Shown in pieces: positions 2,041-35,833 of a DNA stretch of 64,000 nucleotides. The translations under genes and the position numbers were made by a program. Under the pieces are notes generated by a model. The model was not told where the DNA came from, did no database searches, and saw nothing but the letters and a program-made list of their open reading frames with translations. Source of the DNA: Actinopolyspora erythraea (GTDB lineage: Bacteria; Actinomycetota; Actinomycetes; Mycobacteriales; Pseudonocardiaceae). Numbering within the stretch: position 1 is the first letter of the stretch; every line of letters begins with the position of its first letter. The stretch covers positions 5,146,001-5,210,000 of the forward strand of contig NZ_CP022752.1 in NCBI RefSeq assembly GCF_002263515.1, read 5' to 3'.

Positions 2041-2173
2041 GGAACCTCTCGCGGGCTCTCGCTGCGGGGAGGCCCGACATCGGGTAGTTACTACACAACG
2101 TCAGGCCCTCCTACGCGAGAGCACCACGAGAGAACCCGCGACGGTGCCGACCACGAGAGTGGTCGGGGCTCGG
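2041..2173 (+). repeat. Intergenic repeat copy A (MITE/REP-like, imperfect terminal inverted repeats)
   Basis: The core is 2041-2136. The left end (2041-2062, GGAACCTCTCG...) and the right end (2115-2136, ...CGAGAGAACC) are imperfect inverted repeats of 22 bp. The middle holds the conserved block GACAT/ACATCG, GTAG-n3-CTAC, ACGTC. A trailing hairpin (CCGACCAC-gaga-GTGGTCGG, 2147-2166) belongs to the longer similarity. The element starts 34 nt after the glycosidase stop, in the same orientation. Related copies are at 20136-20267 (minus) and 35702-35833. The rest of 2007-2345 holds no gene. Confidence 0.8.
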
Positions 2174-2345
2174 CCCGTGGGAGTGGTGGGAGTGCGGCAC
2201 TGTGCTGAAGGCCCGGAGACTCTCGGGAGATCGACGCCGCCGGGCCTGGGAACCGCCTCACTCGGCGGGGAGAATCACCCCGCATCACCTGTGCTCAAGC
2301 GGTCGACGAAGCCGTCCGCCTCGCGCGCGGCGAGTGCGCCGCGAT

Positions 2346-3248
2346 TCACCGTCCGAGTCGGGCGGACAGCCAGTCGTGCGTGGCGGCGACGTCGGTGAAG
2401 AAGTCGGGGCCGGAGGTTCCGCAGGGCTCGCCCGCCGTCTCCATGCCGAAGCTGAACACCCCGATCAGCCGGGGCCTGCCTCGCGAGTACTCGACCAATG
2501 GCCCGCCGCTGTCACCCGAGCACGCCTGGGCCCGCACCCCGCGCCCGCACATCATCGACTCCCCGTCGACCACGGCGGGGGTCTCCGCCGCACAGCGCGA
2601 CTCGGCCCCGGTCCGGTACACCCCGCGCCGGAGCACGTCGCCCATTCCGGACGAGGCGGTGAGCCCGTGCCCGTAGAACACGGCGGGCCCGCCGCGCCGA
2701 GGCGACTCCTCGGCCACGGGAAGCGTCCGCACCCCGCGTATCGCGCGGTCGAGCGTGAGCACGGCGATGTCGTGGGCCGCGCTGGCCGCCTGCGGGACGT
2801 CCGGGTACTCCGGCGAGGGGATCAGCCGGTAGTCGGGGTGGACGGCCACGTCCGCGATCTCCGCGCGCTCGCCGGGATCCCGGGAGAGCTGGGTGGCCCC
2901 GACCCTGATCTCGAGCAGTCGCCGCAACTCCCGGGGTGGGGCCTCGCCCAGGCAGTGGGCCGCCGTGACCACCTTCCGGGGCGAGACCAGCGCACCGCCG
3001 CAGCTGGCCCGCCGCGGCACGGGGACGTCGGGCACGCCTTCCGCACCTTCCTCGAGCACCAGGGTGGCCTGCCACGGTGCCTCCACCGGGTTGCGCACCT
3101 CGCTGCCGTGCGCCACCGCGCCCGCCGGGCTCGCGCCGAGCACCGTCCCCGTGGCGACCAGCCCGGTCACCGCCAGCGCGGCACCCACCAGACCGGCGCG
3201 GCGGCGAACGGAACGCCCCGAGCGCTCGCCGACCGTCACTTTCCGCAT
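2346..3248 (-). CDS. Secreted trypsin-like serine protease (S1 family)
   Basis: 300 aa. The N-terminus has a basic region then a hydrophobic stretch ending in SPAGAVA, consistent with a Sec signal peptide cleaved near residue 46. The S1 triad is complete: His98 in VVTAAHC, Asp160 in AHDIAVL and Ser247 in CSGDSGGPLV. Cys pairs around His98 (83/99) and before the Ser fit the family fold. The residue six before Ser247 is Ala, so the primary specificity pocket is not the usual trypsin Asp. The start ATG has GGGGAGGAC just upstream. It is monocistronic. The substrate is unknown, and related actinobacterial proteins are extracellular proteases of the chymotrypsin fold. Confidence 0.88.
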   Translation of the reverse strand: MRKVTVGERSGRSVRRRAGLVGAALAVTGLVATGTVLGASPAGAVAHGSEVRNPVEAPWQATLVLEEGAEGVPDVPVPRRASCGGALVSPRKVVTAAHCLGEAPPRELRRLLEIRVGATQLSRDPGERAEIADVAVHPDYRLIPSPEYPDVPQAASAAHDIAVLTLDRAIRGVRTLPVAEESPRRGGPAVFYGHGLTASSGMGDVLRRGVYRTGAESRCAAETPAVVDGESMMCGRGVRAQACSGDSGGPLVEYSRGRPRLIGVFSFGMETAGEPCGTSGPDFFTDVAATHDWLSARLGR

Positions 3249-3375
3249 GTCCGTCCTCCCCGTTCGACTCCGAACCAGGATTCAACGTGGACGGACCGGG
3301 GGAATCCGGGTGATCACCCAGTGCTCCCGGAGTTCCGAGAGCGACGTCCCCCACGCGGATGAGGCGAGGAGAACC

Positions 3376-3391
3376 GGCGCCGGCCGGCGCC
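3376..3391. terminator. GC palindrome after the symporter gene
   Basis: GGCGCCGGCCGGCGCC is a perfect 16-bp palindrome lying 16-31 nt beyond the stop of the minus-strand symporter. As RNA it could form only a tight stem, so its role as a terminator is tentative. Confidence 0.35.
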
Positions 3392-3406
3392 CGGCGAAGC
3401 CACCGC

Positions 3407-4378
3407 TCACCCGCGTGCGGATTCGACCGCGTCGCTGTCCGGCTCCTCGCTCCCGCCGGGCCCGCGCGACCAGAACGAGGCCACCGCCGCACCGGAGAGG
3501 TTGTGCCAGACGGAGAACAGCGCGGCGGGCAACGCGGCCAGCGGGGTGAAGTGCGCGGTGGCCAGGCTCGCGGCCAGGCCGGAGTTCTGCATCCCCACCT
3601 CGATACCCACGGCGCGCCGGGAGGGCTCGTCGAGCCCGGCCAGCCTCGCGGCGCCGTAACCGAGCAGCAGGCCGAAGGCGTTGTGCAGCACCACGGCCAG
3701 CAACAGCAGCGCCCCCACCGAGGTGAGCGTGCTCGCGTTGGCCCCGACCACGGCGGCCACCACCACCACGATGCCGAGCACCGATACCAGCGGCAGCAGC
3801 GGCAGCACGCGCTGGACCAGCCTCGGCAGCGCGGCCCGGACCACGATCCCGAGCACCACCGGGACCAGCACGACCTTGACGATCGACCAGAACAGCCCGA
3901 AAAAGCCCACCGGCAGGCTGGAACCGGCCAGCCACAGCACCAGCAGCGGGGTCAGCAGCGGGGCGAGCAGGGTGGACACCGAGGTCATGGTCACCGACAG
4001 CGCGACGTCGCCTCTGGAGAGGTAGACGACCACGTTGGAGGCGGTTCCGCCGGGAGTCGAACCCACCAGGACCATGCCCGCCAGCAGCGCGGCGGAGAAC
4101 CCGAACGCGCTGCCGATGGCCCAACCCGCCAGTGGCATCACCAGGTACTGGGCCACCAGCCCGACCAGCAGGGCCTGCGGTCTGCGCAGCACCAGCGAGA
4201 AGTCCCCGGCGCGCAGCGTGAGCCCCATGCCGAACATGATCACGCCGAGCAGCGGCGTGATGGCGGGAGCGAGCGCGCTGGTGGCACCGGGCAGCAGCAT
4301 TCCCACCACACCGCCCAGCAGCACCAGCAGCGCGAACCACCGACCGACGAAACCGGCCACGCGGTGTGGCACACCCAT
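3407..4378 (-). CDS. Bile acid:sodium symporter (SBF/BASS) family membrane protein
   Basis: 323 aa from ATG 4378, chosen because GGGGAGG lies 8 nt upstream; the frame stays open to 4411 without a better start. About nine to ten hydrophobic segments fill the protein. Family motifs include VLVGSTPGGTASNVVVYLSRGDVALSVTMTS in the middle, with the NxxS/GG crossover region, and EVGMQNSGLAASLA near residue 270, which form the sodium and substrate crossover helices in BASS proteins. The expected activity is sodium-coupled uptake of an organic anion. Known substrates in bacteria vary (pantoate, keto acids, bile salts), and none can be assigned here. It is monocistronic. Confidence 0.85.
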   Translation of the reverse strand: MGVPHRVAGFVGRWFALLVLLGGVVGMLLPGATSALAPAITPLLGVIMFGMGLTLRAGDFSLVLRRPQALLVGLVAQYLVMPLAGWAIGSAFGFSAALLAGMVLVGSTPGGTASNVVVYLSRGDVALSVTMTSVSTLLAPLLTPLLVLWLAGSSLPVGFFGLFWSIVKVVLVPVVLGIVVRAALPRLVQRVLPLLPLVSVLGIVVVVAAVVGANASTLTSVGALLLLAVVLHNAFGLLLGYGAARLAGLDEPSRRAVGIEVGMQNSGLAASLATAHFTPLAALPAALFSVWHNLSGAAVASFWSRGPGGSEEPDSDAVESARG

Positions 4379-4671
4379 CGCCGAGACCTCCCCACCGTGA
4401 AAGCGCACCACGGCCGGGCACCGCTTTCGGGCTCGACCGAGAAATCCGTGACTTTCCTAGCAGGGTGGATTCCCCCTGTAAACGCCGATCCCGAAACGCG
4501 GAAAGCGACGAGGTTCACGTACCGAAGAAAGCACCGCGACGACGACGGAAAATTTCGTCCCGTACTCGTTCCGTAACCGGATGCGGATTTCCCGCCCGGG
4601 GCCGGATTCTCCCGGCGGCTGCCCCTCGGGAGGCCCCGTGAACGACCTCGACGACCGGGCGGGAGGTCCCG

Positions 4672-5277
4672 TCACACGGGTGGCCGCGGGGCGTACTGGA
4701 TCCCTTCCCTCACCTCGGCGGCGCGCTCCGGCGAGGAGAGCCTGCTCACCAGGTACAGGGCCATGTCGATACCGGCGGACACCCCGGCCGAGGTGATCAC
4801 GTCGCCGTCGTCGACGAACCGGTCGTCGGGGCGCACCTCGATGCTCGGGTCGAGCTCGGCCAGCCTGCCGAGGCTGGGACGGTAAGTGGTGGCGGGCCTG
4901 CCGCGCAGCAGCCCGGCGGCCGCGTAGACCAGCGCACCGGTGCAGACGCTGGTCATCAGCGGCACCGACTCGCGCTGCTCGCGCACCCAGTCCAGCCGCG
5001 CCTCGTCCTCCAGCATCGTCCGGGTGCCGTCGCCGCCCGGATGCAGCAGCACCTCCCACTCGGGCGCGTCGGCGAAGGAGTACTCGGCCTCGATCACCAG
5101 CCCCTTGGCACACTCCACCCGACCACCGTCCGGCGAGAAGGTGGCGACCGTGTAGCCGTCCTCGGGAAAGAACCGGGTCCAGTGGGCCAGCACTTCCCAG
5201 GGGCCCACCGCGTCGAGTTCCTCCACCCCCGGAAAAAGAAAGATACCTATCTGCCGAAGTTCGGATGCCGCTGTCAT
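4672..5277 (-). CDS. DJ-1/PfpI family protein (class I glutamine amidotransferase-like)
   Basis: 201 aa. The fold signature begins with IGIFLFPGVEELDAVGPWEVL (residues 10-30). The nucleophile elbow is TSVCTGALVYAAAGLL, with Cys112. Glu20 is the residue that usually contacts that Cys. This subgroup (GATase1_PfpI_2) includes isonitrile hydratase and small-molecule stress proteins, but not the peptidases. No AraC-type DNA-binding domain is fused. The gene stands alone between the symporter and a frameshifted membrane gene. A specific reaction cannot be assigned. Confidence 0.8.
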   Translation of the reverse strand: MTAASELRQIGIFLFPGVEELDAVGPWEVLAHWTRFFPEDGYTVATFSPDGGRVECAKGLVIEAEYSFADAPEWEVLLHPGGDGTRTMLEDEARLDWVREQRESVPLMTSVCTGALVYAAAGLLRGRPATTYRPSLGRLAELDPSIEVRPDDRFVDDGDVITSAGVSAGIDMALYLVSRLSSPERAAEVREGIQYAPRPPV

Positions 5278-5523
5278 GGGGCTATCCCATCATCATCGGC
5301 GAGAATCCGTCACTCATTTTCCGGCATGGTGGTGTTTTCGCCCCACCGATGGACAATCCCGCCCGCGCCGTCGGACGCCGCTTTCGAGATTCTCCCGCCG
5401 GGCCGGGCCCCGCACCGCGACCGAGCTGTCCTTCTTTCAGGGGCTCGCGGATGCCGGAGTCCGCGCGCGGCGTCATGCTGGCCGGGTCGGGGTTGGACGA
5501 ACTCGGTCGGGGAAAGGCACGGG

Positions 5524-5939
5524 ATGAGCGGCACTCCCGCAAGAAACTCGCCCTTCGTGGGGCTGCACTGGGTCACCATCGTGGCGCTGGGGGTACTGGG
5601 ACTGATCCAGCCGGTGCTGGGCGTCCTGGGGTCTACGAGACGCTGGGCAGACCCTGGAGTCCCGTGGTGGTCACCGCTCTCGTCGCGGTGGTCTGGGTGG
5701 CCGTGGTGGTGCGGCGCGGGGAACAGCGACCGGTGCTGACGCTGACGATCGTGGGCACGTTGTACGGGGTGCTGACGATCGCGCTCAACTGGATCGTGCG
5801 AACAGTCCGGTACGGCGACCCCACACCGCTGCCCGGTCCGGCGATCGCCAGCGTCGTGCTGGCCAATTTGCTGGGAGGCGCGCTGCTGGGACTGCTGGCA
5901 CTGTTGATACTGCGAGTCATGAGCAGGCAGGGACGCTGA
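5524..5939 (+). pseudogene. Small four-helix membrane protein gene, interrupted by an apparent one-base deletion
   Basis: Two frames together encode one plausible protein of about 138 aa. The first frame gives MSGTPARNSPFVGLHW and a hydrophobic helix up to QPVLGVLG. The second frame, from 5631, continues VYETLGRPWSPVVVTALVA and three further hydrophobic helices to the stop at 5939. The frame change falls in the run GGGG at 5628-5631; one extra G would restore a continuous reading frame. The start ATG 5524 follows GGGGAAAGGCACGGG. The function is unknown. It could be a real null allele, slippage, or a sequencing error. Confidence 0.6.
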
Positions 5940-6621
5940 TCGGAGTCTTCCGGCCGGATCGGCGGGGTACTTCGGCGGAACCTCCCGTGAACGCTCGCCC
6001 GGAACGCCCCGAGCACCGCCGGGCACCGCGTCCCCTTCCGGTCCCGCGTGGACCCGTAAGGCTGTGATCCCCCCTCGATCACGGAGGGCCGTCGGCGGCA
6101 CACCTCTCTCGTGGTCGAAGGGGAGGTGAGACAGGTTGGTTTCGCTGTCGGGATTCACCGGTTCCCGCACGGGGACAAGGCCGGGTCGATCTCGCCGGAA
6201 CGATTCCACCGACAGCCGGATCTTCCGTATACCGGAATTGTGACTTCGGAGCTCACCCCGCGAGCCGGATTAAGGGCTCGCCGGTCCGGGGGTTACGCGC
6301 AGCGCGGCGATGATGGGCCGATAATGCGCGAGCATGAGTGCCAGGGCTTACCAAGTACGGGGCCGGGTCCGCCTAGATCCCGCATTGCCTGACACGCGGA
6401 CTTCACCCGCTCTGACCGGGCGCAGACGGCTGTGAACCGTCTCCAGGACACATCCGACCCGTGACCTGCCTGGATCGGCCACGGCGGAGAGCGTATTCCG
6501 TGCTACACTCGGCACTGTTATTTTCTCTCTTGGCGGATTGAATATAACACGGTTGACCTCCGGTTATCACCGGGGGTCTTCTCGTATCTCACGCTTCGTG
6601 CACGGTGAGGCGGGCGCACGA
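5940..6621. other. Gene-free, comparatively AT-rich stretch
   Basis: No convincing coding frame or RNA gene is visible. The stretch 6500-6560 is AT-rich for this genome (TTATTTTCTCTC, TTGAATATAAC). GCGGAACCTC at 5974 resembles the left end of the intergenic repeat, but the rest of that repeat is absent. It may be remnant DNA belonging to the decayed loci on either side. Confidence 0.5.
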
Positions 6622-6656
6622 AAACGCTCGACCGGAAGCGTTCCGGCCGAGCGTTT
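6622..6656 (-). terminator. Near-perfect 16-bp stem terminator
   Basis: Arms AAACGCTCGaCCGGAA and TTCCGGcCGAGCGTTT pair at 15 of 16 positions around the loop GCG, with A and T at the outer ends on both strands. It lies 25 nt beyond the DUF397 stop, so it probably terminates that minus-strand unit. Confidence 0.75.
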
Positions 6657-6680
6657 CGATCGGTTCACAGCACCGGCGGT

Positions 6681-6975
6681 TCACAGCACCGGGAGGCGAG
6701 AGCGTCGGACGGCGCTGTGGCGCTTGCGGAACTCGCGGTGTCGCGGTGGGCTGTCGTCCGCTGTGGTCCAGGCGAGGCGGTCGGTCTTCACGGTGTCCTT
6801 CACGGCGCCGAGGAATACCGTCCACTGTGTACCGGTGACGGTGAGGTATCCGCCCGGCGCGGTCCTTCGTGTCGCGAACACCGACGATCCGGGTTGCGAA
6901 GCCGACCTCGGCACAGTGGTCCGCGCCCCGCGAGCGGCTGGACTCGCGCCAGGTCACGCCGGTCAGGTCGGCCAT
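6681..6975 (-). pseudogene. DUF397 domain gene with a frameshift
   Basis: From ATG 6975 the first frame gives a typical DUF397 opening, MADLTGVTWRESSRSR, then CAEVG and VGVRDTKD. At 6852-6855 (GGGCGG on the minus strand) the match moves to the next frame, which gives GYLTVTGTQWTVFLGAVKD, the normal C-terminal half. One surplus base explains this. The second frame then runs about 30 residues past the usual domain end. DUF397 genes normally sit beside an XRE-family regulator; none is present. Start signal GGAG is 9 nt upstream. Probably a decayed gene. Confidence 0.7.
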
Positions 6976-6981
6976 GCTCAC

Positions 6982-7134
6982 CTACTCCGTGGTCCGATGT
7001 CGCGGCTCCTTGATTCGACGGTCCGGCATCGTCGCCGTCCCACGTTCGGAAGCCGTCGCCGGCAGCATGTGCGGATCACCGCACGACTTCTCCAGCCCCT
7101 CCACTCGGACCGCCCGGTCCTGCCGGATCGCCAT
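6982..7134 (-). pseudogene. Truncated ABC transporter ATPase (N-terminal remnant)
   Basis: ATG 7134 overlaps the stop of the DUF1048 gene (TGATG). The 50-codon frame begins with AVRVEGLEKSCGDPHML, which fits the first strand of ABC ATPases (typically RVEGLEKSYGDxHVL). It then diverges before any Walker A motif and stops at 6982. Known: PadR-DUF1048 pairs in actinobacteria are usually followed by an ABC ATPase and permease. Inferred: the transporter was deleted here, fusing the stump to unrelated sequence 9 nt upstream of the DUF397 start. Confidence 0.6.
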
Positions 7135-7487
7135 CAGCCCGGTTCCCGCTCCCCGGTCGCCCGCTCGATGCCGTGCAGCAGCCGCTGCCGCTCCTTGTCG
7201 GGGACGTATCCGCCCTTCGTGTAGTTCCGGGCGAACTCCTCGGCGAACTCCGTGGGCTCGTCCCCGACGACCTCGCGGATCGGCGTTCCGTCCGATGCGA
7301 CCCGTTCGAACAGCTCGGCGAGGTCCTCGAACTCGGAGATCGCGCTCTCGTTGTCGGCGGGAACGAAGTGCATGAGGTAGCGCTCGATCGCCTCGGCCGC
7401 CGTGCGGTAGTCCTCGGGAAGTCGCCCGACGCGCGCCCTGTACTGCCGGTATCGCCGCTTATCGCCGATGATCTTCGAGATGAGCAT
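7134..7487 (-). CDS. DUF1048 domain protein
   Basis: 117 aa. ATG 7487 lies 2 nt beyond the PadR stop, so translation is probably coupled. The protein starts MLISKIIGDKRRYRQY and contains the helical DUF1048 core, with YRTAAEAIERYLMHF and FEDLAELFERVASDGTPIREVVGDEPTEFAEEF. It has no membrane segment or catalytic motif. Members of the family are found almost only between a PadR repressor and an ABC exporter and are thought to assist that system. Here the transporter is reduced to a stump, so the gene may have lost its partner. Confidence 0.8.
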   Translation of the reverse strand: MLISKIIGDKRRYRQYRARVGRLPEDYRTAAEAIERYLMHFVPADNESAISEFEDLAELFERVASDGTPIREVVGDEPTEFAEEFARNYTKGGYVPDKERQRLLHGIERATGEREPG

Positions 7488-7489
7488 GG

Positions 7490-7819
7490 TCACCTGCCCC
7501 CTTCGCGGAGCTGTTCGAGTCGTTCGGAGAGGAACCGCCAGGCCGCCCAGAACTCTTCGAGGTACTCCCTGCCCTGGTCGTTGAGGGAGTACACCTTGCG
7601 CGGCGGCCCCTTCTCCGAGGGGACCTTCGCCACGTCGACGAGGCCGCGCCTCTCGACCCTGACGAGCAGCGCGTAGACGGTGCCCTCCGCGATATCGGAG
7701 AATCCCTGCTCCCGCAGCCACGCGGTGATCTCGTAGCCGTAAGCGGGTTGACCGGCCAGGATCGCCAGAACGACCCCTTCCAGGGTGCCCTTGAGCATCT
7801 CCGTCGTCCGCTTGCCCAC
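7490..7819 (-). CDS. PadR family transcriptional repressor
   Basis: 109 aa from GTG 7819, preferred because GGAGAGG precedes it by 7 nt; an upstream GTG at 7849 has no ribosome binding site. The winged helix is typical: MLKGTLEGVVLAILAGQPAYGYEITAWLREQGF, then GTVYALLVRVERRGLV and KVPSEKGPPRKVYSLNDQGREYL, followed by a short C-terminal helix. This is the small PadR-s2 type, which usually autorepresses and controls a neighbouring multidrug exporter. The upstream AT-rich segment 7850-7880 (AGTACTGGTACATAGTA) is the probable promoter-operator. It is the first gene of the decayed PadR-DUF1048-ABC operon. Confidence 0.88.
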   Translation of the reverse strand: MGKRTTEMLKGTLEGVVLAILAGQPAYGYEITAWLREQGFSDIAEGTVYALLVRVERRGLVDVAKVPSEKGPPRKVYSLNDQGREYLEEFWAAWRFLSERLEQLREGGR

Positions 7820-7933
7820 GGCAACGCCTCTCCGTCTACTCAATGTCACTTAGTACTGGTACATAGTAACACTGAATAGAGGAGTGGCAAGCCCCAGCGA
7901 CCACCGCGGAACCGGCCCCGACACGAATCGGGC

Positions 7934-7955
7934 CCCCTCCCGCCCTCGGGAGGGG
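7934..7955 (-). terminator. Terminator hairpin after the MscS gene
   Basis: CCCCTCCC and GGGAGGGG form a perfect 8-bp stem with a 6-nt loop, 53-74 nt beyond the MscS stop on the minus strand. Confidence 0.6.
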
Positions 7956-19928: not shown

Positions 19929-20135
19929 TTCTTCGTCCGGCGGTTCACCGGCAGCGGTGGAACCACCACCGCTCCGGCGTGGAGTTCCCGCGAGACCGCC
20001 GGACGAATTGGCCGCGCCTCCCGAGCGTGGGTCGGACGCGTCGCGCGGCAGGGCCGCTCGCCACGTAGGTCGCTACTCAAGAGCCGGCCCAACGCCGCGA
20101 GGCGCCACCCCACGGGTCTCTTCGGCGCGCGAGCG

Positions 20136-20267
20136 CCGAAACCCCCACGCACGCGGCCCGACCACCCGCGGGTTCTCGCGTGCGGCTCTCACGAGGAAGG
20201 CCCGACGTGGCGTAGTACCCACTCCATGTCGCAGCCTCACCGCGGCGAGAGCCGTGCGAGAGGTTCC
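20136..20267 (-). repeat. Intergenic repeat copy B
   Basis: Minus-strand copy of the element seen at 2041 and 35702. The core is 20267-20171: it begins GGAACCTCTCGCACGGCTCTCG and ends with ...ACGCGAGAACC. The centre reads GACATGGAGTGGGTACTACG then CCACGTC. The element starts 41 nt beyond the stop of the minus-strand alcohol dehydrogenase, in that gene's orientation. The distal similarity extends to about 20136 (GGGGGTTTCGG). The rest of 19929-20308 holds nothing else recognisable. Confidence 0.8.
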
Positions 20268-20308
20268 GCCGAGCGACCACCCCGGCAACCGCCCCACAAT
20301 CCTCGAAC

Positions 20309-21346
20309 TCAGCTCGGATCGACGAGCACTTTGAGCGCCTGCCGCTCGGCCATCTCGCGATACCCCTCGGGCACACCGTCCAAACCGGTCCGCCGGTCGA
20401 ACACCCGCCCCGGATCGAGCTTGCCGTAGAGCACGTCGGGCAGCAGCTCGGGGATGTAGGCCCGGGCGGGGCACACTCCGCCCGCGATGCCGACGTTGCG
20501 CGCGAACATCTCGCGCACGTCCACACCGTCGCCGTCCTGCGGGACACCGACGTAACCGACCCGACCGCCTTCCCGGGCCACCCGCAGCGCGGTCCGCAGC
20601 GAGTCACCGGTGCCGACGCACTCCAGCACCGACCGCGTGCCCTCACCGCCGGTCAGCTCGCGGATCCGCTCCACGGCCTCCTCACCCCGTTCGGGGACCA
20701 CGTCCGTGGCGCCGAACTCGACGGCGAGATCCGTGCGATCGGTGTGCCTGCCCATGACGATGATCCGCTCCGCGCCGAGCCGCTTGGCCGCGAGCACCCC
20801 GCACAGCCCGACAGCGCCGTCGCCGACGACGGTGGCGGTGCCGCCGGGGCACACACCGGCGGAGACGGCGGCGTGGTGGCCGGTGGGAAGCACGTCGGCG
20901 AGGGTGAGCAGGGCGGGGAGCAGGTCGCTGTCCGGCTCCACCGGCAGCCGGACCAGGGTGCCCTCGGCGTAGGGCACCCGCACCGCCTCGCCCTGGGCTC
21001 CGTCCGAACCGGACGAGCCCCACAGGCCGCCGTTGACGCAGGAGGTATGCAGCCGCTCCCTGCAGTAGGCGCACTCACCGTCGGACCAGGTGAACGGCGA
21101 CACCACCAGATCGCCCGGCCGCAGCCCGTTCACCTCGGAACCGGTCTCCTCGACGACACCGACGAACTCGTGGCCGATGCGACTGCCCGCGCCGTCCCGC
21201 TCCATACTCCTGTAGGGCCAGAGGTCGCTACCGCAGATGCAGGTCAGGCTCACCCGCACGATCGCGTCGGTGGGCTCGGACAGCACCGGGTCCGCGACGT
21301 CCTCCACCCGGACGTCGCCCGCACCGTGTATGACGGTGGCGCGCAT
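20309..21346 (-). CDS. Zinc-dependent medium-chain alcohol dehydrogenase
   Basis: 345 aa from ATG 21346 (GGAG 8 nt upstream). Catalytic zinc ligands are Cys38 in TCICGSDLW and His59-Glu60 in IGHEFVG. The structural zinc loop is DGECAYCRERLHTSC, in which the usual first Cys is Asp, as in several members of this subgroup. The Rossmann motif is VVGDGAVGLCGVLAAKRLGAERIIVMG. The substrate is unknown; relatives oxidise or reduce short alcohols and aldehydes with NAD(H). It is monocistronic, followed by repeat copy B. Just upstream the minus strand is gene-free up to the VanW stop. Confidence 0.9.
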   Translation of the reverse strand: MRATVIHGAGDVRVEDVADPVLSEPTDAIVRVSLTCICGSDLWPYRSMERDGAGSRIGHEFVGVVEETGSEVNGLRPGDLVVSPFTWSDGECAYCRERLHTSCVNGGLWGSSGSDGAQGEAVRVPYAEGTLVRLPVEPDSDLLPALLTLADVLPTGHHAAVSAGVCPGGTATVVGDGAVGLCGVLAAKRLGAERIIVMGRHTDRTDLAVEFGATDVVPERGEEAVERIRELTGGEGTRSVLECVGTGDSLRTALRVAREGGRVGYVGVPQDGDGVDVREMFARNVGIAGGVCPARAYIPELLPDVLYGKLDPGRVFDRRTGLDGVPEGYREMAERQALKVLVDPS

Positions 21347-21537
21347 GAAACCACTCCGTTTCCGGTCGGAACCTTCCACCTCTCACACGCGTGGAGTAGT
21401 GGCAGGATTCCCGAGCACCGGCATATATCCGGAGATCGTGCGGCATCACACCCGTCGTGCGCCACGGACCGTGGCCGAGCGGGCACCTTCCGGGTCGCGG
21501 GAGGCACCCCCTCCCGGAGCCCGGGCGCCGGGAACGG

Positions 21538-29871: not shown

Positions 29872-30480
29872 TCAATTGGTCGTTGGCGGATGGCGCACGG
29901 AGAACAGTCGCACTTCCGGCCACAGGGTCGCCCAGAGCTCGGTCACGGTGGTTTCGCGCCACCAGAACCGGTCGAACCTGCCCAGCCCGAACAACCCCAT
30001 GATCAGCGAGCTGAACGTCCAGGCCAGTCCCTGACCGGCTTCCGTACCCGGATCGACGCTCTCGGCGTCGCGCACCGAAGCGATCTTGTCGTGGATCAAC
30101 CGCGTCCACCGCCGCTGTATCGCGTGGGCGCTTTCCGAGTCGTCGGACTCGCTGCCCAGGTAGACCCCCGCACGGGTGACGACGTCGGTCTCCAGCAGCG
30201 ACAGCATCGCGACAGTGAAGTCACGGATGGCCACGGGGACGGGGCGGGGGTCGTGCAGCAGCGTGGACTCGTACTCGTCGATGGTGGCCGCCGCGTGCTC
30301 ACGTACGGCCGCCTTCAACTCCTCCTTGGCCTCGAAGTGGAAGTAGAGCGCACCACGACTGAGCCCGGCGACCTCGCAGATCTCCGTGAGTCCGGTGGCG
30401 TCGGCGCCCTTCCGCTCGAAGAGCTCGGAAGCGGCTTCGATGATCGCCCAGCGGCTGTACCTGGCACGTGCTTGTCTCAT
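29872..30480 (-). CDS. Second TetR family regulator, butyrolactone-receptor or pseudo-receptor type
   Basis: 202 aa from ATG 30480 with GGGAGGAG 7 nt upstream. The HTH reads IIEAASELFERKGADATGLTEICEVAGLSRGALYFHFEAKEELK, again of the receptor subgroup. The ligand domain differs from the neighbour and ends in FGLGRFDRFWWRETTVTELWATLW. Pairs of a true receptor and a pseudo-receptor are typical of Streptomyces signalling loci. It is convergent with the first receptor gene. A perfect palindrome lies 25 nt upstream of its start. Confidence 0.82.
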   Translation of the reverse strand: MRQARARYSRWAIIEAASELFERKGADATGLTEICEVAGLSRGALYFHFEAKEELKAAVREHAAATIDEYESTLLHDPRPVPVAIRDFTVAMLSLLETDVVTRAGVYLGSESDDSESAHAIQRRWTRLIHDKIASVRDAESVDPGTEAGQGLAWTFSSLIMGLFGLGRFDRFWWRETTVTELWATLWPEVRLFSVRHPPTTN

Positions 30481-30504
30481 CAGGACACTCCTCCCACAAC
30501 ACAC

Positions 30505-30524
30505 AAAACCGCCTAAGCGGTTTT
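30505..30524. promoter_or_regulatory. Perfect 8-bp-arm palindrome upstream of the second receptor
   Basis: AAAACCGC-ctaa-GCGGTTTT is an ARE-like inverted repeat containing GCGGTTTT. On the minus strand TATAAAACC just upstream could be the -10 box, so the site would overlap the promoter. This fits autorepression. Confidence 0.6.
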
Positions 30525-30747
30525 ATATTCGTCGGAAGCCTACTCGATCCCGCCGGGAATCACCGCAACGCACACCCGAACGCAGCAGCGCCGCACCCCG
30601 GAACCAGCGAGCGACTCCGAGCCAAACGAGAAAAAATCGCAGTTCAACAAGGGTTCACTACTAAGGATCCGCGCGAGGGGCGAGCACGGCGGGCCATCGC
30701 CGGAAGAGCGACTCACAGCCGGAGCCAGAAGCCAACTCTGTCGTTGA

Positions 30748-30765
30748 AAACCAATCGATTGGTTT
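30748..30765. promoter_or_regulatory. Perfect 18-bp palindrome upstream of the atypical response regulator
   Basis: AAACCAATCGATTGGTTT is identical to its reverse complement and is followed by TTATTTTG, a possible -10 region. It lies about 100 nt upstream of the response regulator start. Its AAACC/GGTTT ends resemble those of the 30505 site. The rest of 30525-30863 holds no gene. Confidence 0.55.
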
Positions 30766-30863
30766 GTTATTTTGAGGCTGGTTGGCACCGCAGAACGAAC
30801 GGCTCATCCGCGCCTCCCGTTGTTCGGGAAGCCGCGACGAGCGATCCATGGGACGGAGTCACT

Positions 30864-31538
30864 TTGAACTTACTCGTGGTCGAAGACGACACCGCCTCAC
30901 GCGAGGAGATGTGTCGTGCGCTGCGACGGCACGGTCACTCGGTGGACGCTGCTCATTCCGGCAGGCAGGCGCTCGAGAGGTACCGGAACTCGGACCTGGT
31001 GGTGCTGAGCCTCGACATCGACGATCTCGACGGCCTGGAGCTGTGCCGCGACATACGGGCGACGTGCGAGATCCCCGTCATCGCGCTGGCGGCGCGGGCC
31101 TCCGAGCCCGATCGGGTGCTCGGGCTGCGCGCCGGTGCCGACGACTACATGGCCCGCCCCTGCGGGACGCACGAACTGGCCGCACGCGTCGAGGCGGTCA
31201 CCCGCCGCACCGGCAGCCGGCCCCGGGGCGACCGCGCCATCTCGCACGGACTGCTGCGAATCGACCCGGACGCGCGGGAAGTCCGGTGGAAACAGCGTCT
31301 GATCAACGTGACGAGGAAGGAGTTCGACCTCCTGCACCTGCTCGCCTCGAAACCGAAGACGGTCTTCTCCCGGCAGGAGATCATGTCCGAGGTGTGGGAG
31401 GAGGAGTACCGCAAAACCAGCAGAACGCTCGACACGCACGTCAACAGCCTGCGCAGCAAGCTGCACGACAGCAATTCGATCGTCACGGTACGCGGTATCG
31501 GGTTCCGGCTCGGGCACGAGTCGGCCACGGCCGAGTGA
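30864..31538 (+). CDS. Atypical OmpR-family response regulator with TTG start and TTA codon
   Basis: 224 aa. TTG 30864 is the best start: GGAG lies 5 nt upstream and the product opens MNLLVVEDDT. The third codon is TTA, rare in this genome and read by bldA-type tRNA in actinomycetes. The receiver domain lacks key residues: the phosphoacceptor Asp is Ser49 (VVLSLDIDDLDG), the switch Thr is Ala76 (ALAAR) and the Lys is Arg98 (DDYMARPC). The winged-helix domain is normal (TRKEFDLLHLLASKPKTVFSRQEIMSEVWEEEY ... TLDTHVNSLRSKL ... TVRGIGFRL). No kinase gene is adjacent. It resembles ligand-responsive atypical regulators such as JadR1. Confidence 0.85.
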   Translation: MNLLVVEDDTASREEMCRALRRHGHSVDAAHSGRQALERYRNSDLVVLSLDIDDLDGLELCRDIRATCEIPVIALAARASEPDRVLGLRAGADDYMARPCGTHELAARVEAVTRRTGSRPRGDRAISHGLLRIDPDAREVRWKQRLINVTRKEFDLLHLLASKPKTVFSRQEIMSEVWEEEYRKTSRTLDTHVNSLRSKLHDSNSIVTVRGIGFRLGHESATAE

Positions 31539-31578
31539 GCTTCACGCGGAGCAGTGGAAATCTCCGGGCGTCGATCTC

Positions 31579-31592
31579 GGGGGGGGGGGGGG
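31579..31592. repeat. G14 homopolymer tract
   Basis: Fourteen consecutive G, 40 nt after the response regulator stop. No gene is seen between 31539 and 31804. It is prone to slippage and to assembly errors. Confidence 0.9.
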
Positions 31593-31804
31593 ATCGCCGC
31601 CCGGGTGTTTCGCGGGGACTCGGAATTCCGATTCGGCCGGGGATCGCCCGACACCGTGGTCGTGCTCCGGGGGACAGAGCACGACCTCTCGTCATCGGCA
31701 CCCATCACCGTGATCGTGTTTCGTACGGCCGCCATCCGGACACGGCCACCGGAGGGCGGTTCGAGAAGCCGCACCGGGCTTCGTGGGCTCGGGGCCTCTC
31801 GGGG

Positions 31805-32020
31805 TCAGGCCGCCTTCGACGTCTCCCTGTCAGCCACGCCGGAATCCGCCGAAGTGTCCAGGACGAGCCCACCGGACACGGAGGTTTCGCGCTCGCCGAG
31901 CTCTCCATCCGTTGTCGGAGAACGGTTGAAGTGCGGCGTAGTGCGGTGATCGCTTACGTAGAACACGCTTGCCGCCAAGATCGGCAGCAGTGCACCCATC
32001 ATCACGATGGCAACGTTCAT
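31805..32020 (-). CDS. Small single-pass membrane protein of unknown function
   Basis: 71 aa. ATG 32020 has an excellent ribosome binding site (AAGGAGAGG, 4 nt spacing). One hydrophobic helix at the N-terminus (MNVAIVMMGALLPILAASVFYV) is followed by a polar tail with His, Ser, Thr and acidic residues. The family is not recognised. It sits between the atypical response regulator (convergent) and fadA2, with a perfect palindrome 32 nt upstream of its start, and may belong to the regulatory island. Confidence 0.55.
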   Translation of the reverse strand: MNVAIVMMGALLPILAASVFYVSDHRTTPHFNRSPTTDGELGERETSVSGGLVLDTSADSGVADRETSKAA

Positions 32021-32051
32021 GGTGCCTCTCCTTCAGGCTGTCCGAAACCTC

Positions 32052-32071
32052 GAGTGATCATCCGATCACTC
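32052..32071. promoter_or_regulatory. Palindrome upstream of the small membrane protein
   Basis: GAGTGATC-atcc-GATCACTC has perfect 8-bp arms. It lies in the promoter or leader of the minus-strand small gene. It differs in sequence from the ARE-like sites, so a different regulator is likely. Confidence 0.5.
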
Positions 32072-32731
32072 AATGTGATCTACATGGGGCCGTGGCATCG
32101 CCCTGCCTTACAGGGATGCCGTTATCGGACTCGTCGCTCGCGCGACGAAGAGACACCTCGTCCGGCGCGTGGGAACCCACCCGTTGGGCGAGGACGTATT
32201 CGGGTTGCCTACCTACCGCTCGACCGACAAGCAGGCAACGGGGGTGGCAAGCTCCGCGATGCTGCCAGGTCGGGGGTCCGACAGCATCGCGGAGTCACCC
32301 CGTTCATCGTGCCCGTACATCAAAGTGTTACACCCCCGATATGATGTGTCTTGAGTCACATTTAATGATCGGGAGGGAATGTCGATCGATCGGGATCGAA
32401 CCGTGAACACGAACCGGACCCGATACGGTACGGACGGTCATAATCGATGGTGATCGCACTTTCGTCGAGACGCGGAAAGCGTGATCGCCGCCGAGGTGCC
32501 CACGGGACGAACAGGACCGAGTCGGACGGAATTCCCAACCGGGACAACCAATGTAACGCGGGTCACGAAGCCGAGCACGGCGAACGCGTCGACACCGCTC
32601 GTGCCGGGGACGAACACCGCGCTCCACTTCGGACCGGATTCCCACCGCCCCGGAACCGGTGCCGGACGCGGGGCCTTCCGGAGCGGATCCACCGACCCAC
32701 CGGAAAACGGGAACTGGAGAGTGACTCCCGA
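32072..32731. other. Gene-free stretch with a 13-bp-arm hairpin
   Basis: No convincing gene. The segment 32252-32264 (CTCCGCGATGCTG) is exactly complementary to 32282-32294 (CAGCATCGCGGAG), with a 17-nt loop that can form a further small stem. The region around 32320-32370 is AT-rich. A 24-codon frame at 32379-32453 follows GGGAGGGA but cannot be supported further. Confidence 0.5.
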
Positions 32732-34009
32732 TCAGCGCTCGACGACAGCGGTCAGGCCCTGGCCTCCCGCGGCGCAAACCGAGACCAGGCCACGTCCGGA
32801 ACCTCGCTCGGCCAGCAGCTTGGCCAGGGTGGCGACGATCCGCCCCCCGGTCGCGGCGAAGGGATGGCCGGCAGCCAGCGATGATCCGTTCACGTTCAGG
32901 CGGTCGGTGTCGATCCTGCCCAGCGGTTCGTCCCTGCCGAGCCGCTCGGCGCAGAACTCCGGGTCCTCCCAGGCTTTGAGGGTGCACAGCACCTGGGAGG
33001 CGAACGCCTCGTGGATCTCGTAGAAGTCGAACTCGTCCAACGAGCTCCCCACCCGGTCCAACAGCCTCGGCACCGCGTAGGCGGGGGCCATCAACAGCCC
33101 CTCGTCACCGCTGACGTAATCCACCGCCCCTGGGACGAAGTCGCCGAGGTAGGCGAGCACCGGCAACGAGTGCCGACGCGCCCACTCCTCGCTGGCGAGC
33201 AGCACGGTGGCGGCGCCGTCGGAGAGCGGGGTGGAGTTGCCCGCGGTCATGGTGGCCCCCTCGCCACGGCCGAAGACCGGTTTCAGCTTGGCGAGCTTGT
33301 CCGGGGAGGAGTCCGGCCGCAGGTTCTGGTCGCGCGTGAGCCCCTGGAACGGCGTGATCAGGTCGTCGAAGAACCCGCGCTCGTAGGCCGCGCCGAGTCG
33401 CTGGTGGCTGCGGGCTGCCAGCTCGTCCTGCTCGGCCCGGTCGATGCCCCAGGCGGCGGCCGTCCTGGCGGCGTGCTCCCCCATCGACAGCCCGGTGCGC
33501 GGTTCGGCGTTGCGGGGGATACCGGGCACCACGTGCCCCGGCCGCAGGCCGGTGAGCGCCCGCAGCTTCGCACCGGTGCCCTTGGCGTGGTTGGCGCGCA
33601 GCAGCACCCTGCGCAGGTCGTCGTTGAGTTCGATCGGTGCGTCGCTGGCCGAGTCCACGCCACCCGCTATGCCCGATTCGAGCTGCCCGAGCGCGATCTT
33701 GTTGGCCACCGACACGATCGATTCCAGCCCCGTGGCGCAGGCCATCTGCACGTCGTGCGCCGGGGTGCGGGAGTCGAGCCCGGAGCCGAGCACGACCTCG
33801 CGGGCGAGGTTGAAGTCGCGGCTGTGCTTGAGCACCGCTCCGGCCACGAACTCGCCGACCTCCCGTCCCGCGAGTCCGTAGCGGGCCACCAGGCCGTCGA
33901 GAGCCGCGGTGAGCATGTCCTGATTGGACGCCCGCGCGTAGGGGCCACCGGAACGGGCGAACGGGATCCGGTTGCCTCCGACGATGGCGACCCGGCGAGT
34001 TGTGGACAT
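32732..34009 (-). CDS. fadA2: Thiolase, FadA2-type acetyl-CoA acyltransferase
   Basis: 425 aa from ATG 34009 with GGAGGA 7 nt upstream. Active-site residues: Cys91 in QMACATGLESI, the His in NVNGSSLAAGHPFAATGGR and the Cys in VCAAGGQG near the C-terminus. NRIPFARS and SMGEHAARTAAAWGIDRAEQDELAARSHQ match mycobacterial FadA2. It performs the thiolytic last step of beta-oxidation or its reverse. It is divergent from fabG4, as in the Mycobacterium tuberculosis Rv0242c-Rv0243 region. It probably shares the control region 34010-34324 with fabG4. Confidence 0.92.
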   Translation of the reverse strand: MSTTRRVAIVGGNRIPFARSGGPYARASNQDMLTAALDGLVARYGLAGREVGEFVAGAVLKHSRDFNLAREVVLGSGLDSRTPAHDVQMACATGLESIVSVANKIALGQLESGIAGGVDSASDAPIELNDDLRRVLLRANHAKGTGAKLRALTGLRPGHVVPGIPRNAEPRTGLSMGEHAARTAAAWGIDRAEQDELAARSHQRLGAAYERGFFDDLITPFQGLTRDQNLRPDSSPDKLAKLKPVFGRGEGATMTAGNSTPLSDGAATVLLASEEWARRHSLPVLAYLGDFVPGAVDYVSGDEGLLMAPAYAVPRLLDRVGSSLDEFDFYEIHEAFASQVLCTLKAWEDPEFCAERLGRDEPLGRIDTDRLNVNGSSLAAGHPFAATGGRIVATLAKLLAERGSGRGLVSVCAAGGQGLTAVVER

Positions 34010-34253
34010 GGCCGATTCCTCCGCGCAACTAGTCGACGAGCGCCGGCCCCGGAAGGGGTTTCCGGCCTGCCAGCAGCACCCTGCCACCCCGGATACCGGG
34101 GCGCTCGCTCGGCGGAACCGCCGGGTCGCCCCGGCGGGGCACCACGGCTCCGAGGGGCCTTACCCGAACCCCGGCGCTCGCCGATGTCCGGGTGGCGCGG
34201 GCGCCCCGCACCGGCGCTCGGGCACCCGGACGAGCGCACCTGGCAGAGCACTA

Positions 34254-34283
34254 CTGACAACTTAACCTACCGACGGGTAGCTT
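34254..34283 (+). promoter_or_regulatory. fabG4 promoter with operator in the spacer
   Basis: CTGACA (34254-34259) and TAGCTT (34278-34283) are separated by 18 bp. The spacer carries CTACCGACGGGTAG (34267-34280, arms CTACC/GGTAG), 45 nt upstream of the fabG4 start. The site shares the form yTACyGryGrGTAr with the two fadE5 operators. It also lies between the divergent fadA2 and fabG4 genes, so it may control both. Confidence 0.65.
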
Positions 34284-34324
34284 ATCCGTCGAGTGCCGAA
34301 CCACGCATGGAGGAGTTGCTCGTC

Positions 34325-35662
34325 ATGGCGGATCCGTACAGCAAGTTGGTCACATCCAGCTACGGGCGACAGCTGGCCAAACGGCTCGGGCTGCCCACCC
34401 CCACTCCACTGCGCAGGTACCGCCCCGGGGACCCGGTCGTGTCCGGCCCGGTGCTCACCGGCGAGGCCGAGGGCTCCCGGCTCGGCGAGGCCGTGTCCGA
34501 GACACTGGAAGCCGTGCACGCCGAGGTGCACCGGACGCGGGACGAGGACGCCGAGTACGCCGCCCTGGTCTTCGACGCCACCGGAATCGGTGACAGCCTC
34601 GCCCTGGGCGAACTGCACGAGTTCTTCAGCGACACGATCCGCCGCGTGGGCAGGTGCGCCAGGCTGATCGTGCTCGGCACACCGCCGGAGGAGATCGACG
34701 ACCCCGCCGAACGCACCGCGCAACGCGCGCTGGAAGGATTCGTGCGCACCGCGGGCAAGGAGCTCAAGCGCGGCTCCACGGCCCAGCTGGTCCAGGTCTC
34801 CCGGGGCGGCGAGCGGGCGGTCGACTCCACGCTGCGCTTCCTGCTCTCCCCGAAGTCCGCGTTCGTGTCCGGCCAGGTGATCCGCGTCGGAGCGGCCGAA
34901 GCCCCCACCGCTGACGGCTCCCTTCCGCTGCGCGACAAGGTCGCGCTGGTCACCGGGGCGTCCCGTGGGATCGGCGCCGCGATCGCGGAGACGCTCGCCC
35001 GCGACGGGGCTCACGTGGTGTGCCTGGACGTCCCCTCCCAGGGGCAGGACCTCGCCGAGGTCGCCAACCGCATCGGCGGTTCCACGCTGCAGCTCGACAT
35101 CACCGCCGAGAGCGCGCCCCAGCAGCTGATCGAGCACATCGAGCAGCGGCACGAAGGGCTCGACATCGTGGTGCACAACGCGGGAATCACCCGGGACAAG
35201 ACCATCGGGCGAATGAGCCGCGACCAGTGGGACGCGGTGCTGCGCGTCAACCTCGCCGCCCAGGAGCGGATCAACACCGCCCTGCTGGCCGAGTCCTCAC
35301 CACTGCGCCGAGGTGGAAGGCTCGTCGGCGTCGCCTCCATCAGCGGTATCGCGGGCAACGTGGGGCAGGCGAACTACGCCACCTCCAAGGCGGGCGTGAT
35401 CGGCCACGTGCAGGCGCTCGCGCCACGCGCGGCCGAACGAGGCGTGACGATCAACGCCGTGGCCCCCGGATTCATCGAAACCGCGATGACCGCCGCGGTG
35501 CCGCTGTTCGTGCGGGAGGCGGGCAGGCGGATGAACAGCCTCTCGCAGGGCGGACTGCCGATCGACGTCGCCGAGACCATCGCCTTCTACGCCGACCCCG
35601 GTTCGGCGGGGGTGAACGGCAATGTGGTCCGCGTCTGCGGGCAGAGCCTGCTGGGGGCTTGA
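34325..35662 (+). CDS. fabG4: High-molecular-weight 3-oxoacyl-ACP/CoA reductase, FabG4 type
   Basis: 445 aa from ATG 34325, with GGAGGAG about 10 nt upstream. An N-terminal flavodoxin-like domain of about 200 residues (SYGRQLAKRLGLPTPTPLRRYRPGDP) is followed by a classical SDR domain: TGASRGIG (210-217), HNAGITRDKTIGRM (NAG at 285-287), Ser340, Tyr351 and Lys355 (YATSK). Size and layout match mycobacterial FabG4. It reduces beta-ketoacyl thioesters with NAD(H) and probably pairs with the htdX-like dehydratase downstream. Repeat copy C begins 39 nt after the stop. Confidence 0.92.
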   Translation: MADPYSKLVTSSYGRQLAKRLGLPTPTPLRRYRPGDPVVSGPVLTGEAEGSRLGEAVSETLEAVHAEVHRTRDEDAEYAALVFDATGIGDSLALGELHEFFSDTIRRVGRCARLIVLGTPPEEIDDPAERTAQRALEGFVRTAGKELKRGSTAQLVQVSRGGERAVDSTLRFLLSPKSAFVSGQVIRVGAAEAPTADGSLPLRDKVALVTGASRGIGAAIAETLARDGAHVVCLDVPSQGQDLAEVANRIGGSTLQLDITAESAPQQLIEHIEQRHEGLDIVVHNAGITRDKTIGRMSRDQWDAVLRVNLAAQERINTALLAESSPLRRGGRLVGVASISGIAGNVGQANYATSKAGVIGHVQALAPRAAERGVTINAVAPGFIETAMTAAVPLFVREAGRRMNSLSQGGLPIDVAETIAFYADPGSAGVNGNVVRVCGQSLLGA

Positions 35663-35701
35663 GGGTTTCGGCGGCTCGGTTGGCGTGGGTGGTCCGGTGG
35701 C

Positions 35702-35833
35702 GGAACCTCTCGTGGGCTCTCGCTGCGGGGCCGGAGACATCGAGTAGGTACTACGCCACGTCTCCGGCGTCCTCGCGAGAGCACCCCGAGAGAACCAGCG
35801 GCGGTGCCGACCGCGAGGGCGGTGGGGGTTCGG
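35702..35833 (+). repeat. Intergenic repeat copy C
   Basis: The core 35702-35796 begins GGAACCTCTCGTGGGCTCTCGC and ends with GCGAGAGCACC then CCGAGAGAACC. The centre is GACATCGAGTAGGTACTACG, CCACGTC. The tail (GGCGGTGCCGACCGCGAGGG, then GGTGGGGG) extends the match to 35833. It starts 39 nt after the fabG4 stop in the same orientation and separates fabG4 from the htdX-like gene. No gene lies in 35663-35974. Confidence 0.8.

What the first reader, a model, noticed from the sequence alone, without database searches (positions are those of the whole stretch)
2041..35833. Three-copy intergenic element placed 34-41 nt after stop codons, always in the orientation of the gene
Seen: copies at 2041-2173 (+), 20136-20267 (-) and 35702-35833 (+) share imperfect 22-bp terminal inverted repeats (GGAACCTCTCG... 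/ ...CGAGAGAACC), a nested central palindrome (GACAT...GTAG-n3-CTAC...ACGTC) and a tail hairpin. They follow the glycosidase, alcohol dehydrogenase and fabG4 stops at 34, 41 and 39 nt. Three unrelated genes with the same placement and direction is unlikely by chance. It may be a MITE that targets terminator hairpins, a REP/BIME-like element, or a 3'-UTR regulatory module. No transposase was seen.
Basis: partly seen in the sequence, partly recalled or inferred. Interest (0 to 1): 0.82.

Follow-up and report, generated by a model that had tools for sequence, protein, structure and literature searches.

The report
Repeat hairpins placed behind stop codons
About 150 copies of a repeated DNA hairpin in this Actinopolyspora-type genome sit, in roughly three of four cases, about 40 letters after the end of a gene and facing the same way, which makes them look like a spreading, ready-made gene-end signal.

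Summary
The window holds three copies of one element (E1). A covariance model finds 147 loci in the 5.24-Mb genome (142 at E<=0.01), 129-145 matches in 9 of 10 genomes of the genus (own included), and diverged members in other genera of the family. E1 is a ~33-nt leader, a ~104-nt nested hairpin with conserved internal loops, and a tail. Of 147 loci, 107 lie 25-60 nt after a same-strand stop codon (mode 40). Sampled hairpins behind E1-free genes start anywhere from 0 to 111 nt. In another genus 17 of 30 loci lie at 39-53 nt, behind mostly different genes, and a second repeat (E2) follows the same rule. Arms covary strongly between genera, yet G-U pairs are rare and not favoured, so the palindrome looks DNA-maintained. 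Orthologous sites show gain (window copy 2 is absent from five close congeners), loss, mosaic arms and breaks at the hairpin tip. No Rfam family, T-tract or consistently linked Y1 transposase was found. Best reading: a new REP/MITE-like family used as a portable, stop-registered mRNA 3' end. Distribution and dynamics are shown. The termination role and the copying route are inferred.

The parts
2007..2038 (+). E1 copy 1, leader between the stop codon (2004-2006) and the hairpin
   Evidence: a similar leader precedes E2 at the same gene in G001, G004, G005
2039..2142 (+). E1 copy 1, nested hairpin core
   Evidence: R1 111.7 bits, E 1e-22; 34 nt from stop to GGAACC
2143..2175 (+). E1 copy 1, tail
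   Evidence: conserved tail columns; alignment
177..2006 (+). host gene of copy 1: glycosyl hydrolase family 9
   Evidence: gene; Pfam PF00759, PF02927
20270..20308 (-). E1 copy 2, leader; roughly the first 12 nt after the stop are shared with congeners that lack E1
20165..20269 (-). E1 copy 2, hairpin core; not present behind the same gene in G009, G004, G005, G001, G007
   Evidence: R1 107.4 bits; 41 nt from stop
20121..20140 (-). short GC hairpin TTCGGCGC..GCGCCGAA between E1 and E2
   Evidence: sequence; same order at own 167093, 518078 and 848832
20018..20113 (-). E2 copy, second repeat family, directly behind E1 copy 2
   Evidence: R3 94.1 bits, E 7e-20
20309..21379 (-). host gene of copy 2: zinc alcohol dehydrogenase
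   Evidence: gene; Pfam PF00107, PF08240
35663..35699 (+). E1 copy 3, leader
35700..35802 (+). E1 copy 3, hairpin core
   Evidence: R1 104.4 bits; 39 nt from stop
35803..35833 (+). E1 copy 3, tail
   Evidence: conserved tail columns
34307..35662 (+). host gene of copy 3: short-chain dehydrogenase (FabG-type)
   Evidence: gene; Pfam PF13561, PF00106

Best explanation
E1 (with a second family, E2) is a new REP/MITE-like family of short, non-autonomous palindromic repeats in Actinopolyspora and some other genera of its family (the genus name comes; the family name Pseudonocardiaceae is recalled). The unit is leader (~33 nt), nested hairpin (~104 nt) and tail (~30 nt). It is kept mainly as the first thing behind a gene's stop codon. 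I think it works as a portable mRNA 3' end: the leader holds the hairpin ~38 nt from the stop, outside the reach of a terminating ribosome, so the hairpin can fold behind RNA polymerase and end or cap the transcript. It spreads at the DNA level as a palindrome, by an enzyme or recombination route not identified, and is lost by deletion through the palindrome tip or between repeats. Shown: copy number, register, orientation, avoidance of short tandem gaps, covariation, presence/absence and mosaicism at orthologous sites. Inferred: gain rather than parallel loss, transcription termination or 3'-end protection, the spacer role of the leader, and how copies are made.
For: Register: 107 of 147 loci are 25-60 nt behind a same-strand stop (103 by the gene finder, 4 by hand); median 41 of all 119 same-strand cases. 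The first copy of the own genome is 37 nt behind dnaA. Of 42 pattern matches in 5 named Actinopolyspora species, 32 are same-strand and 28 of these lie at 30-60 nt. Of the 30 best loci of G004, 25 lie at 35-46 nt; of the 30 best of G022 (another genus), 17 lie at 39-53 nt, and only 3 of 17 best-hit host genes carry E1 in the own genome. Control on 260 of 468 E1-free gene ends: the best hairpin starts with quartiles 9-67 nt (convergent, 53 strong of 59) and 14-64 nt (tandem, 173 strong of 201). Context: E1 lies in 61 of 298 convergent, 75 of 1144 tandem and 10 of 288 divergent gaps; half of 1069 E1-free tandem gaps are under 100 nt, but with the hairpin subtracted only 1 of 56 tandem E1 gaps is, and 5 of 56 if ~70 nt of leader and tail are also taken off. 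Covariation across 22 copies of several genera: 92.9% of cells paired (shuffled 78.4; slid 37-50), 95 doubly changed cells against 28.8, 0 of 500 shuffles (structure drawn by me from these sequences). E2 follows the same rule: 13 of 24 at 38-51 nt. Site histories. External: in E. coli a terminator is repressed close to a stop codon and reaches full efficiency beyond ~27-30 nt (PMC4824070, passages read).
Against: No T-tract-type terminator is called on the three window hairpins (that scan allows only short simple loops), and no T-run shows in the right-flank consensus. G-U:A-C mispairs are 204:183, 25:28 and 7:19 in own, G004 and G022 over all pairs, and 129:97, 5:6 and 7:6 after dropping eight pairs, so pairing is hardly selected at the RNA level after insertion. 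Congener G006 has only 3 copies: of 21 own E1 genes with a reciprocal best hit in the part of G006 I held (3 of them under 36% identity), 2 have an E1 in the ~200 nt after the stop, so it is not needed. Many stems carry mismatches. 40 of 147 loci are not in the 25-60 nt register. No expression data exist. No copying enzyme and no clean target duplication was found.
Confidence: 0.5

Rival explanations
1. E1 is a purely selfish mobile palindrome (MITE or REPIN-like) whose insertion machinery prefers the boundary just behind stop codons. The host gains nothing; purifying selection only removes harmful insertions.
For: Watson-Crick-dominated palindromes with neutral-looking decay. Absence of copy 2 from five close congeners, apex truncations and mosaic arms. 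G006 does nearly without it. 22 of 38 copies that are not stop-anchored still have a TGA/TAG/TAA 33-48 nt upstream, against 3-14 of 38 in twelve other 15-nt windows. E1 and E2 are both nearly missing from G006 (3 each), as if a shared trans-acting factor were absent there.
Against: Stop codons are only 1842 of about 14,400 candidate stop triplets (12,517 intergenic on both strands plus 1842), yet 107 of 147 copies sit at real ones, so a triplet preference alone does not explain it. At copy 2 roughly the first 12 nt after the stop are native, so the junction is not at the triplet.
Confidence: 0.32
2. E1 is an RNA-level 3'-UTR regulon: a structured RNA bound by a protein or RNase that tunes decay or translation termination of its host genes, like E. 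coli REPs near stop codons.
For: Prevailing register and orientation. Conserved internal loops and apex across genera. The core is more alike than leader and tail between own and G004 orthologues (mean 0.87 against 0.71 and 0.70, 18 pairs). In those pairs 25 base pairs changed on both sides against 9.4 expected, 16 of them keeping the pair.
Against: Few wobble pairs, G-U not clearly favoured over A-C. In one search, 84 pairs broke on one side against 28 one-sided changes that kept pairing. The E. coli translation effect needs a REP within 15 nt of the stop (PMC12306157 passages), whereas the E1 hairpin starts at ~38 nt.
Confidence: 0.13
3. The hairpins are unrelated terminators that only look alike.
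For: Hairpins are common behind genes here.
Against: 147 loci at 21.7-125.8 bits to one model, shared leaders, and homology that stops near the stop codon.
Confidence: 0.01

Closest known systems
REP sequences and REPINs (E. coli, Pseudomonas)
   Same: High-copy extragenic palindromes; hairpin of two inverted arms; some lie close behind stop codons; thought to be non-autonomous mobile DNA (PMC3116915 abstract; PMC3733652 and PMC12306157 passages).
   Different: E1 is ~104 nt plus leader and tail; its GTAG is paired at the apex, not an unpaired end tag; no consistently linked Y1 transposase; registered to stop codons, whereas REP doublets are reported as randomly distributed in extragenic space (PMC3116915 abstract).
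Bacterial MITEs and intergenic repeat units
   Same: Short, inverted-repeat, non-coding, multi-copy, found singly and in composites (class description recalled; RU-1 to RU-3 seen only as the start of an abstract in a search listing, PMC2759123).
   Different: No transposase with matching ends known, no clean target duplication seen, and a nested compensatory hairpin over the whole length.
Intrinsic (Rho-independent) terminators
   Same: GC hairpin behind a gene, just beyond the ribosome-shadow distance measured in E. coli (PMC4824070 passages).
   Different: No T-tract called at the window copies; a repeat family; far tighter spacing than other hairpins of this genome.
Integron attC sites
   Same: Imperfect palindrome directly behind a stop codon in gene orientation (recalled).
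   Different: Copies lie behind ordinary genes scattered over much of the chromosome, and both arms read AAC on the top strand instead of the inverted core-site pair (attC comparison from recall).
Rfam mraW RNA (RF01746)
   Same: One full-length but weak match to the opposite strand of copy 1 (22.1 bits, E 0.018 for 241 bases).
   Different: Below the gathering score of 50; E1 copies in seven other loci (38.5 kb searched) give no such match at E up to 5.

Membership tests
REP / REPIN | High copy number palindrome in intergenic DNA | tested here: met
   147 loci, 2 of them overlapping a gene call
REP / REPIN | Unpaired GTAG (or CGTC) tag at one end of a 20-40 bp palindrome | tested here: not met
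   Hairpin ~104 nt; GTAG pairs with CTAC at the apex (96.5% of cells in 22 copies; the commonest pair is kept in 104-136 of 147 own copies at each of the four pairs)
REP / REPIN | Linked Y1 transposase (RAYT) | tested here: not met
   PF01797 absent from G008 and G009, which have 134 and 141 E1 matches; 1-7 matches in the other eight genomes, including G006 with 3 E1. Linkage of single copies was not examined
MITE | Terminal inverted repeats | tested here: met
   Both arms pair over the whole length
MITE | Target-site duplication at filled against empty sites | tested here: inconclusive
   Copy 3: own has GGCGG on both sides, G004 has leader joined to tail with one GGCGG, but GGCGG flanks are common in other copies. 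Copy 2: 333 nt in own face 34 nt in G009; 341 nt face 99 nt in G004 and G005
MITE | Parent transposase with the same ends | not tested
   No search for an ORF flanked by E1 arms was made
Intrinsic terminator | Hairpin followed by a T-tract | tested here: not met
   No E1 hairpin called terminator-like in three 501-base regions around the copies; one other site called at 35909-35926(-)
Intrinsic terminator | Ends transcripts | not testable with these tools
   No RNA 3'-end data
Structured cis-acting RNA | Covarying helices | tested here: met
   18 of 36 pairs doubly changed (shuffled mean 12.3), 0 of 500 shuffles
Structured cis-acting RNA | G-U tolerated better than A-C | tested here: inconclusive
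   204:183, 25:28, 7:19 over all pairs; 129:97, 5:6, 7:6 after dropping eight pairs
Any Rfam family | Match at gathering score | tested here: not met
   Only F6 sRNA in the window, elsewhere

The most novel reading that the evidence does not exclude
A self-spreading gene-end cassette: two palindromic families (E1, E2) are copied, by a shared machinery missing or lost in G006, into the first few nucleotides behind stop codons and swapped there as modules. In this genus the 3' untranslated region would itself be a mobile, exchangeable part whose built-in leader sets the stop-to-hairpin distance, and insertion would somehow read the translation-stop boundary or an mRNA 3' end.
Probability: 0.15. 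Interest if true: 0.88.

Novelty: new variant of a known kind. Interest (0 to 1): 0.62.

Why it matters
Palindromic repeats such as REPINs are reported as randomly distributed in extragenic space. Here about 150 copies per genome prefer one register to the stop codon, in two repeat families and, for E1, again in another genus behind mostly different genes. That makes it a natural experiment on how far a hairpin must be from a terminating ribosome, and on how a mobile palindrome can be confined to gene ends. It also gives an annotation aid for gene 3' ends in these organisms, and covariance models for finding more.

Tried and rejected
Rejected: unrelated terminators. Replication-linked orientation: 95 of 147 copies point with the fork (origin taken at dnaA, which starts at base 10 of the contig), but so do 984 of 1597 genes (61.6%), so gene direction explains it. 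Target triplet alone: stop codons are too small a share of candidate triplets. Leader as ordinary 3'-UTR sequence: 8 of 607 E1-free 3' regions score 10 or more, against 11 of 1500 shuffles. Plasmid or phage carriage: no match in either collection for a 191-nt query. Y1 transposase link. Rfam. tRNA near six of the distant copies: none; E2 was found instead in 10 of the 14 copies more than 100 nt behind a same-strand stop. I judged this from titles and abstract starts, plus passages of three papers and the outline and abstract of one. Subscription papers are mostly not held, so this is no proof that it is unpublished.

Weak points: genes were called by a home-made codon model, not a curated annotation. 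The stretches held were chosen to contain E1 (plus 12 elsewhere), so shares of gaps are enriched. Copies are not independent. G004 and G022 loci are the 30 best-scoring only. The E2 set of 24 came from a pattern search in those stretches and one of them (5057512) is probably a shadow of its neighbour. The conserved-core comparison may reflect gene conversion as well as selection. No tree of the genus was built; 'close congener' rests on DNA identity.
Full report
WHAT WAS CLAIMED AND WHAT IS THERE. The three sequences exist at 2039-2142(+), 20165-20269(-) and 35700-35802(+), 34, 41 and 39 nt behind the stop codons of a GH9 hydrolase, a zinc alcohol dehydrogenase and a short-chain dehydrogenase. 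They are related and fold better than shuffles. The window has no fourth copy by the model (the stray 11-mer at 52500 lacks the hairpin).

COPY NUMBER AND RANGE. The 11-mer GGAACCTCTCG occurs 53 + 46 times in the own genome, against 2 + 1 for the reversed control. A rescan of 100 stretches (1.99 Mb) adds some weak loci. In the genus, 9 of 10 genomes (own included) have 129-145 matches and G006 has 3. In the family, 31 of 150 sampled genomes and 13 of 46 genera have matches. In an order-wide sample of 200 genomes with a multi-genus model, 11 match, all listed as the same family. The genus is Actinopolyspora, by the named records that share the pattern; which species the window comes from was not determined.

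ANATOMY. Homology between copies runs from near the stop codon through a ~33-nt leader, a ~104-nt nested hairpin and a tail. Leader and tail resemble each other (a ~24-nt unit; a weak peak at lag 24 in the tails). In 22 copies from several genera a 36-pair structure, drawn by me on that alignment, is met in 92.9% of cells, 18 pairs show double changes and no shuffle of 500 reaches this; sliding the partner by 1-3 columns drops it to 37-50%. The internal loops and apex stay nearly constant while the helices change. G-U pairs are few and not clearly commoner than A-C mispairs: 204:183, 25:28 and 7:19 in own, G004 and G022 over all pairs; 147:182, 6:28 and 7:18 without the pair that marks a subfamily; 129:97, 5:6 and 7:6 after dropping eight pairs. 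I read this as a palindrome maintained mainly as DNA.

REGISTER. With a codon-model gene finder, 119 of 147 loci have a same-strand gene upstream, 26 an opposite-strand gene, and 2 overlap a gene call. Four of the 26 prove to follow a same-strand gene after all. The final tally is 107 at 25-60 nt (103 + 4), 16 at other distances behind a same-strand gene, 22 not behind one, 2 overlapping. Of the 14 that are more than 100 nt behind a same-strand stop, 10 have a second repeat, E2, between the stop and E1. In a random 260 of 468 E1-free gene ends the best strong hairpin starts anywhere from 0 to 111 nt. In five named species, 28 of 32 same-strand matches (of 42 matches in all) lie at 30-60 nt. 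Among the 30 best loci of G004, 25 lie at 35-46 nt. Among the 30 best of G022, another genus, 26 follow a same-strand gene and 17 lie at 39-53 nt, although only 3 of 17 host genes with a best hit carry E1 in the own genome. Of the 38 own copies that are not stop-anchored, 22 still have a stop triplet 33-48 nt upstream, against 3-14 in other windows; I cannot fully explain that.

CONTEXT. E1 is in 61 of 298 convergent gaps, 75 of 1144 tandem gaps and 10 of 288 divergent gaps in the sampled stretches. Half of the E1-free tandem gaps are under 100 nt; with the hairpin subtracted, 1 of 56 tandem E1 gaps is, and 5 of 56 if leader and tail are taken off too. The stretches were chosen to contain E1, so the shares are enriched, but the contrast between gap types stands. 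Orientation with replication follows gene orientation. One copy sits 37 nt behind dnaA.

E2. A second, ~96-nt hairpin family follows the same rule: of 24 copies found by pattern, 13 are 38-51 nt behind a same-strand stop and 4 directly behind an E1. A model of 15 copies gives 62 matches at E<=0.001 in the own genome, 56-79 in the eight other E1-rich genomes and 3 in G006. Some of these may be cross-hits, because E1 copy 1 itself reaches 31 bits. Several convergent pairs carry one E1 and one E2 on opposite strands.

HISTORY OF THE THREE WINDOW COPIES. Copy 2 is absent from G009, G004, G005, G001 and G007, which have a different short palindrome there; G002 and G003 show none either, and G006 and G008 could not be read with my anchor. 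The own genome has 333 nt (E1, a short hairpin, E2 and more) where G009 has 34 nt; G004 and G005 have 99 nt against 341. The simplest reading is a gain in the own lineage; parallel loss is not excluded. Copy 3 is shared with G009, but with a different left arm; G004 has leader joined to tail without the hairpin; G005, G001 and G007 keep only the left half up to the apex; G002 and G003 carry E1 inverted; G006 and G008 show no complete E1 in the 330 nt printed. At copy 1, G009 has E2 then a decayed E1; G001, G004 and G005 have whole or partial E2 behind a similar leader, in G004 fused to the right half of an E1; G002, G003, G006 and G008 show none in the 330 nt printed; the G007 site was not found. 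Further pairs show different cassettes behind nearly identical proteins, for example G009 L253. Own against G004: 19 of 25 best-hit genes carry E1 in both; in 3 of the other 6 the own gap does hold an E1, one at 41 nt but mis-assigned, one inverted, one belonging to the convergent neighbour. So copies are inherited, lost, recombined and most likely gained. Breaks at the apex fit palindrome instability.

HOW IT PROBABLY WORKS. I commit to a portable gene-end module. In E. coli a terminator within a few nucleotides of a stop codon is silenced by the terminating ribosome and reaches full efficiency beyond ~27-30 nt (PMC4824070, passages read). E1 and E2 bring their own leader, which puts the hairpin at ~38-45 nt. 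That would explain the distance, the orientation, the avoidance of short tandem gaps and the separate elements of convergent genes. It does not by itself explain why farther positions are little used, for which a preference of the copying mechanism is needed. The near-equal G-U and A-C counts, the missing T-tract and the nearly E1-free G006 genome speak against a strong or essential role.

WHAT IT IS NOT. It is not a REP in the strict sense (no unpaired GTAG tag, no consistently present Y1 transposase), not a canonical intrinsic terminator by the pattern scan, not an Rfam family at threshold, and had no match in the plasmid and phage collections.

Noticed in passing
own genome C1:1.48-3.23 Mb: Only 3 of 147 E1 loci lie in this third of the chromosome, opposite dnaA. 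G004 also has no listed copy between 14,135 and 1,304,238. Perhaps a younger, accessory region.
   Followed up: partly
own 4854907; L290, L295, L317: A few E1 copies abut the start codon of a divergent gene (42-43 nt from GGAACC) instead of a stop codon.
   Followed up: no
G006 (congener, 4.23 Mb): Has only 3 E1 and 3 E2 matches while the nine other genus genomes (own included) have 129-145 and 56-79, as if one shared factor were missing.
   Followed up: partly
3' regions of several loci, e.g. L278-L282: A third short palindrome, GGCGATTTCGCGAGAAATCG-type, recurs behind genes and beside E1.
   Followed up: no
window 32245-32301 (-): F6 sRNA of Rfam RF01791, 60 bits.
   Followed up: no
window 2035-2139 (-): Weak full-length match of the opposite strand of copy 1 to mraW RNA, 22.1 bits, below threshold; not repeated in seven other loci.
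   Followed up: partly
G102, G075, G122 (genus g34): L235-L237: One E1-like copy per genome, 17 nt behind the stop of the same gene, with the stop codon inside what aligns as the leader.
   Followed up: no
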